The translations under genes and the position numbers were made by a program. Source: Diadema setosum (lineage: Eukaryota > Echinodermata > Echinoidea > Diadematoida > Diadematidae). From it: a stretch of DNA of 64,000 nt. Positions 38,971 to 57,851 of the stretch are shown here, one piece after another. How positions within the stretch are numbered: position 1 is the stretch's first letter; the number at the start of each line of letters is the position of its first letter. The notes under the pieces are model-generated. The model was not told where the DNA came from. It searched no databases and saw only the letters and a program-made list of their open reading frames with translations. The DNA is taken from contig NC_092693.1 of the NCBI RefSeq assembly GCF_964275005.1, forward strand, positions 18,171,706 to 18,235,705, written 5' to 3'.

Positions 38971-39011
38971 AAAAAACACACTTCATCCTAACAGGATGAA
39001 GTGTGTTTTTT
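38971..39011. repeat. Perfect 19-bp hairpin over the MULE/SWIM stop codon
   Basis: Arms AAAAAACACACTTCATCCT and its exact inverse are separated by the 3-base loop AAC. The gene's last codons (KKHTSSC) and its TAG stop lie in the hairpin. Confidence 0.9.
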
Positions 39012-39643
39012 ACCCAGTGCCACATTCCTCTCTACACATTGTGATGGGAAATGTGGCGCTGGGCGCTGACTCCTTGGAAGGACGCCTCTCTTGACGGAGC
39101 CCTTCTGTCTCGCATAACCATGTTCATTTTGGGTTCCTTTTACTAGGCGCCCAGTAATCAGATCCAATCTTCCACCCACTGCAGTCTTTCTCCTGCTGAC
39201 TGCAGTGGGCTGGACACCAATTTTTGTTGAGGTGAGCATCGCTCGCTGGCTGACATGTCTAGATTTCTTCGACAAGGCATGGCCGTTATACTTGCCAAAT
39301 GTCGACAAGGCAGATACAAGAGCACTGTCTGTAGTGATTTGTTCAAACCGCTCAACGAACTTTGTGAGTGGAGTGTGGAAGGATTCCTTGTCCTCTTGAA
39401 GTTTGAAACGTAGGGTTTGAAACATATCCTCAAGCTTGGTTGAAAGGCTCTTAGACCGCGTGTTCTTTCCTCTGTGAAGGAAATTATTATCAAGATCCCT
39501 CTGCAAAGAAAGAGAGTCAAGCCTTTCGATCTGAGGATCATGTGATGTAGAGACAACCATCATCTCGTCAGCATCAAGAGGAAACTTGGCTTGCTCGGCA
39601 GGGTGAAGGTTAGCAAACCATTCATTGGGTACATCATCTCTAC
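38988..39643 (-). CDS. MULE/SWIM gene, terminal exon 7
   Basis: 217 codons plus stop, from RDDVPNEWFANLHPAEQAKF to the basic C-terminus KKHTSSC. Acceptor TTTTTCAG. No known fold recognised in this tail. Confidence 0.85.
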
Positions 39644-57600: not shown

Positions 57601-57851
57601 GGTAATAGGCCTACTGGTAGCTACATGATCAATGATGATAAGGTAGATGCAGAAGGTTTTTCTGACGTGTATTAAATATGCCATGGGAATGAACAACTAT
57701 AGATCTATATAGATCTATATACCAGGTATAAACAAACAAGTCATAGATCTAAGTCATCTCAATGTTTCTCAAAGTCTACTACATTGCAACTTACCTCTAA
57801 AGTACCGAAACAGTCAACATCAGGTGCACACAGCCCGCATTTAGAAATCAT
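38988..57851 (-). CDS. MULE transposase / SWIM zinc-finger protein, seven exons, reading frame unbroken
   Basis: Seven exons splice in phase to about 838 residues. Order: a Cys-containing start (MISKCGLCAPDVDC), a FAR1/FLYWCH-like N-terminal region with RCHHNTRYTSTRGK, a LNYAHNHPLSCADALRR block, then a MULE transposase domain with candidate DDE residues Asp291 (IFVDSSG), Asp363 (VMTHDCKAL) and Glu481 (NNFVESAM) and the MULE C-x2-H (LCVFHL, 383-386). A SWIM finger C-x-C-x8-C-x-H (575-588) follows, then a basic tail. MULE transposases bind and cut transposon ends; some have become host transcription factors (FAR1/FHY3 in plants). The open frame, full set of key residues and host-like introns fit a domesticated gene or a young intron-bearing MULE. 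No terminal repeats bounding the whole unit were found. The 9-kb first intron holds other transposons. Exon 1 is the least certain part. Confidence 0.85.
39825..39960 (+). repeat. Dispersed GACCTTGA...GTGACC repeat fragment
   Basis: Shares tttcatgacgaaagactc and taccttgaactttgatcttgtgacctcaaag-type phrases with 37928-38560, 41650-41960 and 45230-45730. Lies in the last intron of the MULE/SWIM gene. Confidence 0.5.
39981..40549. mobile_element. TTAA-flanked inverted-repeat element, 569 bp
   Basis: Ends TTAAAGGACAAGTCCACCTT and its near inverse AAGGTGAACTTGTCCTTTAA; inverse similarity continues inward for more than 100 bases. TTAA at both ends suits a piggyBac- or Kolobok-type target. Non-autonomous. 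Confidence 0.8.
40674..40713. repeat. (GT)n microsatellite
   Basis: About 20 GT units with single-base interruptions. Confidence 0.9.
40790..41212. mobile_element. PIF/Harbinger-like MITE, TGA duplication
   Basis: 423 bp, ends GGGTGCATTTATCA and TGATAAACGCAGCC, TGA on both sides. The interior repeats GGAAACAGCTTT/AAAGCTGTTT-type blocks in both orientations. Confidence 0.75.
41264..41288. repeat. (CT)n microsatellite
   Basis: About ten CT units. Confidence 0.85.
41650..41960 (+). repeat. Two-unit GTGACCTTGACC repeat with ACAGACGGACGG end
   Basis: Phrases attgaattctgagaccttgaa, tcattgtcac and caagttgaa-gttgat occur twice. The block ends cagacggacggaaggatggacggacgacccg. Related to 45230-45730. 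Confidence 0.6.
42031..42300. repeat. (TTA)n trinucleotide array, about 270 bp
   Basis: Nearly pure TTA/ATT units, later mixed with ATC and a duplicated TTTTAATTATCATGATTATT block. Confidence 0.95.
42414..42627 (-). CDS. MULE/SWIM gene, exon 6 (SWIM finger)
   Basis: 71 codons with TCTCPKGESGGPCKHQYAVV, the CxCx8CxH SWIM zinc-binding motif. Flanked on both sides by long trinucleotide arrays of opposite polarity. Confidence 0.93.
42652..42860. repeat. (ATA)n trinucleotide array, about 210 bp
   Basis: Nearly pure AAT/ATA units, the reverse complement of the array at 42031-42300 on the other side of the SWIM exon. Confidence 0.95.
43774..44770 (-). CDS. MULE/SWIM gene, exon 5 (MULE DDE transposase domain)
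   Basis: 332 codons without interruption. Key blocks: MIFVDSSGNCDRHDSRIFVV, VVMTHDCKALRQGLHAVYPQ, LCVFHLMQALWRWLW and NNFVESAMRVIKEKVFNR. This is the catalytic core of Mutator-like transposases. Confidence 0.95.
45230..45730 (+). repeat. Three-unit GTGACCTTGACC repeat with ACAGACGGACGG end
   Basis: Units near 45260, 45410 and 45565 each read accttgac(c)attgacctt(t)gagaccccaaaat followed by tcattgtcactc. Ends acagacggacggaaggacgacccg, like 41650-41960. Confidence 0.6.
45736..46553. mobile_element. Inverted array of AATTCGTCTAATGCC-type units
   Basis: Left of the nested element, phrases such as ATTGGTCTAATGCCAATTCG recur about every 17-20 bases. Right of it the same phrases occur in reverse complement (GACGAATTGGCAGTAGACG). 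The two arms bracket 45923-46351. No coding frame. Confidence 0.6.
45923..46351. mobile_element. TTAA-flanked inverted-repeat element nested in the array
   Basis: Begins TTAAAGGTATTAGCCCACAT and ends ATGTGGGCTAGTACCTTTAA. Its TTAAAGG ends resemble 39981-40549. The interior has a CpG-rich patch around 46095-46160. Confidence 0.75.
46573..46842 (-). CDS. MULE/SWIM gene, exon 4
   Basis: Reads SKDSHLEEGLLFIVTLNYAH, NHPLSCADALRRNDVSEATE and ends ASADRSICPDVQFCY plus AG before GTAAAG. Phases match both neighbours. Confidence 0.88.
47420..47500 (+). repeat. Three GACCTGTT(C/T)ACACTA phrases
   Basis: The phrase occurs near 47419, 47442 and 47483 within a MULE/SWIM intron. Short and of unknown origin. 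Confidence 0.5.
47687..47805 (-). CDS. MULE/SWIM gene, exon 3
   Basis: Reads VDLRCHHNTRYTSTRGKVTK then NTSCPASVFIVLKRFMKHS. The C...HHN...C pattern is the zinc-finger-like N-terminal DNA-binding region of such proteins. Ends AG/GTATGG. Confidence 0.85.
48020..48290. repeat. Dispersed repeat with AGGTCAAAGGTCA and GACAGACAGACAG end
   Basis: Starts gtgaaacgctatgcccccg and ends gacagacagacaggatgaaaac...cgggggcataaaaa. Contains an exact AGGTCAAAGGTCA at 48079-48091, then GGTCA phrases. Resembles the GTGACCTTGACC repeats in reverse. Confidence 0.55.
48367..48425. repeat. (ATT)n trinucleotide array
   Basis: TTA/ATT units with ATC variants. Confidence 0.9.
48686..48889 (-). CDS. MULE/SWIM gene, exon 2
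   Basis: 68 codons from RILPPRHEHVVCSFEPLDGD to TYPDAGKFNTFR. Acceptor GTTGCAG; donor AGG/GTGAGG. Confidence 0.85.
49060..49375. repeat. Mixed (ATA)n / (ATC)n low-complexity region
   Basis: Clusters of ATG, ATC and AAT triplets on both sides of a short unique stretch. Confidence 0.85.
49843..50325. mobile_element. Inverted-repeat element, CAGGGCTGCCAAC ends
   Basis: 483 bp with ends CAGGGCTGCCAAC and GTTGGCAGCCCTG and a 6-bp duplication TATTAT (49837-49842, 50326-50331). The inner gagtgagag / gcgtgagac blocks are inverted too. No gene. Confidence 0.85.
50684..51531 (+). repeat. Left LTR, split by a MITE
   Basis: Starts TGTGGTAAATGGAAATGC and ends ATCCAGCTTACAAC. About 400 bp is native LTR; the rest is the nested element at 50730-51176. 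Confidence 0.85.
50730..51176. mobile_element. PIF/Harbinger-like MITE inside the left LTR
   Basis: 447 bp, ends GGCTGCGTTCACATAGAAGT and ACTTCTATGTGAACGCAGCC, TTA duplication (50727-50729, 51177-51179). Short tandem CGGTATT units lie near the left end. The right LTR lacks it, which proves insertion after the retrotransposon. Confidence 0.9.
52099..53314 (+). other. gag-like region of the LTR fossil
   Basis: An open stretch holds FSGYCEDDTGTPFSNWMEMF and a Leu-rich helical region (LTGPAKEEILYCLSN, YLRCLFYNHVQHDSEDLADF) typical of retrotransposon gag capsid-like domains. The later part is acidic and unlike anything I know. Fossil; not described further. Confidence 0.7.
53858..53949. repeat. 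92-bp inverted repeat in the LTR element interior
   Basis: Arms ATATTGACTGGCCTCGAGGG and CCCTCAAGGCCAGTCAATAT. Possibly a tiny foldback insertion. Confidence 0.7.
54346..54392. repeat. Short inverted repeat, CAGGGAGGTGGG arms
   Basis: CAGGGAGGTGGGGAG and CTTCCCACCTCCCTG face each other. Copies of CGACAC(C/G)CAGCGACGT lie on both sides (about 54293 and 54467). Confidence 0.6.
55447..55743. repeat. Inverted duplication of LTR sequence, 147-bp arms
   Basis: 55447-55593 is the near-exact reverse complement of 55597-55743, separated by CCC. The right arm is the normal LTR segment; the left LTR has only one copy. Confidence 0.9.
55754..55889. mobile_element. MITE, CATACTTGCCAAC ends, in the right LTR
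   Basis: 136 bp, ends CATACTTGCCAAC and GTTGGCAAGTATG, with a 6-bp duplication ATTTGT (55748-55753, 55890-55895). Absent from the left LTR. The GCCAAC end resembles 49843-50325. Confidence 0.9.
56042..56195. mobile_element. MITE, GGGCCCGTTTCATAAAACTT ends, in the right LTR
   Basis: 154 bp, with the end inverse AAGTTTTATGAAACGGGCCC and CAG on both sides. Absent from the left LTR. Shares the ccaatcagatgcaaggatttc core with 59547-59682. Confidence 0.9.
56728..57700 (-). mobile_element. 5'-truncated LINE, C-terminal reverse-transcriptase ORF and tail
   Basis: On the minus strand a frame (57696-57472) reads LLCVLHKRIWNVLPPDVKDS then TIFSRFKVLTRKYLLHRY, the conserved end of CR1/Jockey-type LINE ORF2 (WN.LP...FK..). 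A 0.7-kb 3'UTR follows, then a GAATAAACTTGAACTTGAAC tandem tail near 56727-56750, typical of such LINEs. Truncated at its 5' end near 57700, so immobile on its own. Lies in intron 1 of the MULE/SWIM gene. Confidence 0.75.
57327..57355. repeat. (CA)n microsatellite
   Basis: About 14 CA units inside the LINE-derived region. Confidence 0.9.
57795..57851 (-). CDS. MULE/SWIM gene, candidate coding exon 1
   Basis: ATG at 57851 reads MISKCGLCAPDVDCFGTLE and ends GAG/GTAAGT. Phase 0, matching the AGA start of the next exon. Chosen because exon 2 starts after an acceptor without its own early Met. The CxxC spacing looks deliberate, but the link is inferred. Confidence 0.5.

What the first reader, a model, noticed from the sequence alone, without database searches (positions are those of the whole stretch)
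38988..57851. Unbroken, seven-exon MULE transposase/SWIM gene: domestication candidate
The exons join in consistent phases across six introns with no interruption. The candidate DDE residues (Asp291, Asp363, Glu481), the MULE C-x2-H and the SWIM finger are all present. Host-like intron structure and the absence of bounding terminal repeats favour a captured host gene; an intact catalytic core also allows an active, intron-bearing MULE. Plant FAR1/FHY3 are known precedents for MULE-derived transcription factors; an animal counterpart would be notable.
Basis: partly seen in the sequence, partly recalled or inferred. Interest (0 to 1): 0.8.

Follow-up and report, generated by a model that had tools for sequence, protein, structure and literature searches.

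The report
Intact intron-rich MULE transposase-derived gene
A real, unbroken seven-exon gene built from an old jumping-gene enzyme sits between ordinary animal genes, and it has many distant relatives scattered in the same genome, so it is a good but unproven candidate for a jumping gene that the host has kept.

Summary
The exon 4/5 intron recurs at the same residue and phase in 5 of 5 paralogues examined.

No near-identical full copy was found in the 913-Mb genome, but the gene is not alone. One search gave 46 non-window rows in 19 loci: 16 diverged paralogues and 3 short near-identical fragments; one search adds a fourth. A sister lineage (C19, C3) shares exons and introns at 90-99% DNA identity in the parts compared, as a 17-20 kb block, so a related lineage was copied recently. 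That block shows no long terminal repeats either, so their absence at the window gene does not favour a host gene.

Selection on the window copy could not be shown; orthologues were not available. Animal MULE-derived genes are already described (FHY3-type, PMC10027918; ZSWIM1/3-type in Pfam, also here). Most likely it is an immobile single-copy descendant of an old intron-bearing MULE lineage, still coding a full-length transposase-like protein.

The parts
57795..57890 (-). Exon 1 (alternative start ATG at 57851); short Cys-containing N terminus
   Evidence: Open frame to GT donor. Copies of exon 1 at C16 (one) and C5 (two, inverted). The C16 copy has a 1-base insertion between the two ATGs.
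48686..48889 (-). Exon 2
   Evidence: AG/GT borders, phase 0/0; weak homologues in the C19 (aa 43-107) and C3 (aa 31-107) paralogues
47687..47805 (-). Exon 3; two Cys (C105, C124) that with H160/H162 of exon 4 could form a zinc cluster of WRKY-GCM1/FLYWCH/FAR1 type (pattern recalled, no Pfam hit)
   Evidence: AG/GT borders, phase 0/2; C105, C124 and H162 listed, H160 read from the protein
46573..46842 (-). Exon 4
   Evidence: 41-51% aa identity to the paralogues that cover it; its donor is shared with 5 of 5 paralogues examined
43774..44770 (-). Exon 5: MULE DDE core (D304, D376, C-x2-H, E494)
   Evidence: Pfam MULE, NCBIfam IS256; conservation
42414..42627 (-). Exon 6: SWIM zinc finger (C588, C590, C599, H601)
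   Evidence: Pfam SWIM over cut-off; one of 3 SWIM matches listed for the genome at E<=0.001 (a lower bound)
38988..39643 (-). Exon 7: C-terminal region and stop codon
   Evidence: Homologous to the C4, C3 and C19 paralogues within aa 673-849; part of it copied to C14 and C15

Best explanation
A genuine, unbroken, intron-bearing gene from an old branch of the MULE transposase superfamily, which has at least 16 other diverged loci in this genome. The window copy stands alone between host genes (MBTPS1 and PRMT7) without detectable element ends, so it is most likely an immobile single-copy descendant: a relict transposase source or an early domesticated gene. It should still encode a DNA-binding protein (N-terminal Cys/His cluster and SWIM finger) with a DDE nuclease core. 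Shown: exon structure, open frame, domains, shared intron, paralogues, no full near-identical copy among the places found, recent DNA-level copying of a sister lineage. Inferred: immobility, DNA binding, catalytic competence. Not shown: transcription, selection, host function.
For: Gene model and open frame; domains; shared exon 4/5 intron, 46 of 53 rows lie outside the window in 19 loci: 16 diverged paralogues and 3 short fragments; no second full-length copy of the window gene listed (lower bounds); candidate catalytic residues kept across the family, D304 in 9 of 10, D376 in 11 of 12 and E494 in 6 of 7 paralogue loci that cover them; no TIR found, with 30-bp repeats at 90-100% identity detectable in 39 of 40 trials; host genes on both sides; neutral simulation: at 1.2% substitutions plus indels the frame stays open in 89 of 2000 trials, a weak hint of constraint.
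Against: Substitutions that separate the window gene from its near-identical fragments look neutral: 11 nonsynonymous to 3 synonymous against C14, 12 to 2 against C15, and the 3 window-only changes all fall at codon positions 1 and 2. Exon 1 is no better conserved than the start of intron 1 in the C5 and C16 copies, though it is better conserved than the 5' flank of the C16 copy. With indels left out of the simulation the frame stays open in 699 of 2000 trials at 1.2%. A single-copy TE that arrived recently would look similar.
Confidence: 0.6

Rival explanations
1. Fully domesticated host gene (FHY3/FAR1-like or ZSWIM-like regulator): the old transposase now acts as a DNA-binding regulator and is kept by selection at a fixed, syntenic place. 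(Overlaps with the best explanation, which leaves early domestication open; the odds are not exclusive.)
For: Single full copy among places found, intact frame, no TIRs found; lies between MBTPS1 and PRMT7; among the shorter tip branches of the family tree, 0.319.
Against: All candidate catalytic residues retained, so nothing indicates loss of transposase function; no sign of purifying selection in the small sample available; other loci, such as L037 with Glu-to-Lys and a lost C-x2-H but open fetched exons and an intact SWIM, fit domestication better; tree supports are low at three nodes (39, 43, 58).
Confidence: 0.3
2. An intact autonomous copy of a live, intron-bearing MULE lineage with very short or no TIRs.
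For: Intact triad and frame; a sister lineage was copied with introns between C19 and C3 at 94.7% over 2.2 kb and within C3 at about 99%, with a shared block ending about 190 bp after the stop codon and short TTTTTACC-like ends; dN/dS 0.39 between the C19 and C3 copies over three exon stretches, Fisher p 0.006; MULEs without TIRs are known, e.g. Curupira (table passage of PMC6446971).
Against: No second full copy of the window gene listed; the 11 paralogues in the tree are only 30-47% identical to it; no target duplication seen by eye at the C19/C3 block, and no exon 1 homologue recognised before exon 2 in that block, so the block may be a 5'-truncated segmental copy rather than a transposon.
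Confidence: 0.2
3. Decaying pseudogene or gene-model artefact.
For: No RNA evidence; simple-sequence TTA/TAA arrays on both sides of exon 6; two near-identical exon 7 fragments show that pieces of it get copied about.
Against: No frame lesion in 851 codons, all borders canonical, intron shared with paralogues, stop codon aligned with paralogues.
Confidence: 0.04

Closest known systems
FHY3/FAR1-type MULE-derived genes, plants and (since 2023) animals
   Same: MULE core followed by a SWIM finger, candidate N-terminal zinc cluster, intact gene without TIRs found (plant features recalled)
   Different: No Pfam FAR1 domain reported (E up to 10; HMMER filters drop most matches above about 0.1); no function known; candidate catalytic triad intact
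ZSWIM1/3 family (Pfam PF21056; present here as L007)
   Same: Animal MULE-derived gene with RNaseH-like core and SWIM finger
   Different: The window protein does not match PF21056 or PF21600; L007 is one stop-to-stop frame of 673 aa, PF21056 at 87.4 bits
Ghost and Curupira MULEs (PMC6446971, section 5 and table passages read)
   Same: Animal MULEs with a SWIM finger in some members and no TIRs found; those authors also raise domestication for Ghost
   Different: No sequence comparison could be made here
Own-genome paralogue lineage C19/C3 (L032-L035, L044-L048, L050)
   Same: Exon break at the same residue (exon 4/5), same DDE core and C terminus
   Different: 43-44% aa identity over 247 columns, extra exon breaks near aa 305 and 455, recently copied as a block

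Membership tests
MULE transposase superfamily (Pfam PF10551) | MULE profile over its cut-off | tested here: met
   28.1 bits on the exon 5 stop-to-stop frame against 27.6 and 30.4 in the genome search, but 26.1 on the joined 851-aa protein, just below
MULE transposase superfamily (Pfam PF10551) | D-D-E triad and C-x2-H motif | tested here: met
   D304, D376, E494, C-x2-H present and mostly conserved in paralogues; no trustworthy structure (pLDDT 45.1)
Autonomous MULE element | Terminal inverted repeats | tested here: not met
   None above chance (control); short or diverged repeats could be missed (20 bp at 80-90%: 6 of 40 found)
Autonomous MULE element | 8-11 bp target-site duplication | tested here: inconclusive
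   No element ends were found at the window gene, so no TSD could be sought there
Autonomous MULE element | Several near-identical full copies | tested here: not met
   Only fragments of exon 1 and exon 7 listed elsewhere (lists are lower bounds)
FHY3/FAR1-type gene | FAR1 DNA-binding domain | tested here: not met
   No FAR1 match among Pfam hits up to E 10
FHY3/FAR1-type gene | MULE core plus SWIM finger in that order | tested here: met
ZSWIM1/3 family | PF21056 RNaseH-like domain | tested here: not met
   Absent; present in L007
Domesticated transposase gene | Purifying selection and orthologues at the same place | not testable with these tools
   No related animal genome held; the comparison with fragments looks neutral but is tiny
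Domesticated transposase gene | Transcribed and spliced | not testable with these tools
   No RNA data

The most novel reading that the evidence does not exclude
An ancient intron-bearing animal MULE lineage has been kept many times over in one genome: the window locus as a catalytically intact, stationary gene, and sister loci such as L037 (Glu to Lys, C-x2-H lost, fetched exons open, SWIM intact) as catalytically dead DNA-binding genes, while another branch (C19/C3) is still being copied. That would be a natural series from transposase to regulator within one genome.
Probability: 0.25. Interest if true: 0.65.

Novelty: new member of a known kind. Interest (0 to 1): 0.42.

Why it matters
If kept by selection, the locus would be an animal MULE-derived gene with an intact catalytic core, and with its relatives in the same genome it would let one ask what changes when a transposase turns into a host gene. 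If still mobile, it belongs to an intron-rich MULE lineage without recognisable ends, which end-based transposon surveys would miss.

Tried and rejected
TIRs around the gene: best matches no better than E 0.40, and a reversed control also reached 0.40. Inverted-repeat list: of 269 pairs only the 25 longest are shown; 24 of them are the TAA/TTA arrays and one is a local 230-bp pair inside intron 6 (39982-40211 and 40320-40549). The idea that exon 1 lies in a high-copy TIR: 4 places were listed in the genome, two of them in a 316-bp inverted repeat on C5, and the multiple alignment gave no common element end. The idea that the C15 fragment is a processed copy spanning the exon 6/7 junction (suggested): rejected, the fragment carries the end of intron 6 and the start of exon 7, so it is a DNA copy. 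AlphaFold of exon 5 alone gave pLDDT 45.1 and was not used; no fold search was run. PDB sequence search with exon 5 found one chance-level match at E 0.97. Viral contigs: 10 pattern matches, 0 confirmed relatives. Literature searches (titles and abstract starts seen): 20 of 48 papers listed; 20 of 668; 20 of 164; 10 of 10; 20 of 66; 1 of 1; 15 of 526; I saw no echinoderm MULE-derived gene in these listings, which are partial. Passages were read in PMC10027918, PMC6446971 (plus its section 5) and PMC13359780. An own-genome search with the PNMA-like ORF did not complete. Four of the 16 paralogue loci (C8:7.58M, C18:33.4M, C4:36.6M, C1:0.40M) were not fetched. The C3:32.8M copy was left out of the tree because C3:34.4M stands for it, and L008, meant as outgroup, gave no usable row, so the tree is unrooted.
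Full report
OBSERVATION. On the minus strand seven exons run from 57890 (or ATG 57851) to 38988. All six introns have GT..AG borders and the joined frame is open for 851 codons; the other two frames of the joined sequence hold 41 and 49 stops. Pfam MULE scores 28.1 bits on the exon 5 frame (cut-off 27.6) but 26.1 on the whole protein; SWIM scores 30.3 and 26.2 (cut-off 19.6). A bacterial IS256 transposase profile matches exon 5 at E 8.6e-7, far under its own equivalog cut-off.

NOT CHANCE. The strongest support for the exon model comes from relatives. 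In 5 of 5 paralogues examined (L026, L036, L037, L038, L039) exon 4 ends at the same Arg codon with the same phase-2 GT donor, and in the 4 whose next exon was displayed an AG acceptor stands at the matching place (the L026 acceptor has a second candidate). The C-terminal residues and the stop codon also align with the C3 and C19 paralogues.

SURROUNDINGS. The neighbours are host genes: a site-1 protease (MBTPS1) exon at 3039-3386 (E 3.9e-41 to the solved protein) and a PRMT7-like exon at 62249-62431 (E 2.3e-14). The window lies at C9:18171706-18235705 of a 912.7-Mb assembly of 102 contigs.

COPY NUMBER. The own-genome protein search scored 53 of 82 candidates: 7 rows are the window exons, 46 rows fall in 19 other loci (lower bounds, as the tool states). 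Three of these are short near-identical pieces: C14 (exon 7, 95.8% DNA), C15 (exon 7, 93.8%) and C5:22.83M (exon 1). A DNA search with the exon 1 region gave 4 places: the window, C16 and two inverted ones on C5; one with the exon 7 region gave the window, C14, C15 and two local inverted matches. The remaining 16 loci are diverged paralogues; DNA of 12 of them was fetched. Identity to the window protein over aligned columns is 30-47% for the 11 in the tree. Four of the 16 lie on the window's own contig C9 (binomial p 0.0046, counted after the fact).

RECENT COPYING OF A SISTER LINEAGE. C19:10.19M, C3:34.40M and C3:32.8M match each other across exons and introns: 94.7% over 2.2 kb for C19 against C3:34.4M, about 99% for the two C3 copies over 0.5 and 0.7 kb. 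The C19/C3 similarity ends about 190 bp after the stop codon and about half a kilobase before the exon 2 homologue, giving blocks of 16.9 and 20.0 kb; only parts of the interior were compared (90.3% over 2.98 kb at the 5' side, 94.6% over 0.71 kb at the 3' side). The ends share only about 8-10 bp (TTTTTACC) in inverted order and no target duplication was seen, both by eye. No exon 1 homologue was recognised before exon 2 in the block, so a truncated segmental copy is not excluded. The two C3 copies share about 2.9 kb beyond the 3' side of the block (3.7 kb in all), which looks like a larger duplication on C3. Between C19 and C3, over three exon stretches, dS is 0.061 and dN 0.024 (17 synonymous and 22 nonsynonymous changes), ratio 0.39, Fisher p 0.006, so these copies were coding for at least part of the time since they split.

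Introns are a property of the whole lineage, so they do not mark a captured host gene. No TIR was found at the C19/C3 block either (that scan had no control of its own), so absence at the window gene cannot decide. The scan at the window gene would have found 30-bp repeats at 90-100% identity in 39 of 40 implants, but 20-bp repeats at 80-90% in only 6 of 40 and 15-bp repeats in 1 of 60.

SELECTION. What could be tested is small and leans neutral. Against the C14 fragment the window exon 7 shows 11 nonsynonymous and 3 synonymous changes, against C15 12 and 2; of the changes seen only in the window copy all 3 are at codon positions 1 or 2. In the C5 and C16 copies exon 1 (92.0-95.8% identical) is not better conserved than the adjoining intron (94.1-100%), although in the C16 copy it is better conserved than the 5' flank (83.6%, 42 gapped columns). 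On the other side, an unconstrained frame of this length stays open in 89 of 2000 trials at 1.2% substitutions with indels, and in 699 of 2000 without indels; the 1.2% rests on 3 events in about 260 bases.

FAMILY PATTERN. D304 is kept in 9 of 10 paralogue loci that cover it, D376 in 11 of 12 (one of the 11, L042, has a second alignment with Thr), E494 in 6 of 7; the C-x2-H pair is kept whole in 6 of 12 (with C19 D304). L037 (C9:3.96M) has Lys for the Glu and Ser for both C and H, yet the exons fetched (homologues of 4, 5 and 6) are open and its SWIM finger is whole; the stop that flags in its exon 4 row lies at the start of the intron. It is a better domestication candidate than the window gene; its exons 1-3 and 7 were not seen. 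In contrast L036, L039, L041, L042 and L043 carry stops and L026, L042 and L043 change frame. In an unrooted tree the tip branch of the window gene is 0.319; L037, L038, L039 and L040, which all lack an intact C-x2-H, have 0.62-1.39 (three nodes have supports of 39, 43 and 58).

KNOWN KINDS. FHY3-type MULE-derived genes were reported in a sponge, molluscs, a brachiopod, arthropods and Branchiostoma in 2023 (PMC10027918, passages read). 'Sea urchin' and 'echinoderm' occur 0 times in its main text. ZSWIM1/3 proteins have a Pfam RNaseH-like family, and L007 in this genome matches it (87.4 bits). The window protein matches neither PF21056 nor a FAR1 domain. Some animal MULEs lack TIRs (PMC6446971, table passages and section 5). 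The same genome also holds young MULE families of other kinds: L002-L005 at 98.6-99.3% identity, L008-L010 at 99.1-99.8%, L013-L018 with L024 at 93-98% over their longest matches.

VERDICT. A real, intact member of an old intron-bearing MULE lineage, probably stationary now. Domestication is possible and unproved. Ordinary in kind, moderately interesting because of the series of intact, altered and recently copied relatives in one genome.

Noticed in passing
window 52093-53314, + strand: PNMA/gag-like ORF (227 aa, Pfam PNMA 40.6 bits) followed by an overlapping 196-aa frame without Pfam match, inside intron 1 and antisense to the gene. Copy search did not complete.
   Followed up: partly
window 38748-39014: 48-bp inverted repeat (38748-38795 and 38917-38964, 94%) directly 3' of the gene, and a 47-bp self-inverted stretch at 38968-39014 that overlaps the stop codon.
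   Followed up: partly
L031 (C5:22826600-22828700) 16-331 and 1008-1322: 316-bp inverted repeat at 95.6% whose arms hold copies of the gene's exon 1.
   Followed up: partly
L029 (C15) 1533-1792 and L030 (C14) 1524-1859: DNA copies of the end of intron 6 plus the start of exon 7, on two other chromosomes, with no other part of the coding sequence found in the fetched stretch.
   Followed up: yes
L037 (C9:3963800-3969400): Paralogue with catalytic Glu to Lys and the C-x2-H motif lost, but open fetched exons and an intact SWIM finger.
   Followed up: partly
L007 229-2247, - strand: ZSWIM1/3-like gene as one 673-aa open frame.
   Followed up: no
L008/L009/L010 and L001-L005, L013-L018, L024: Young multi-copy MULE families of other kinds in the same genome.
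   Followed up: partly
window 42036-42274 and 42656-42859: Long TTA and TAA arrays on either side of exon 6, complementary to each other across the SWIM exon.
   Followed up: no
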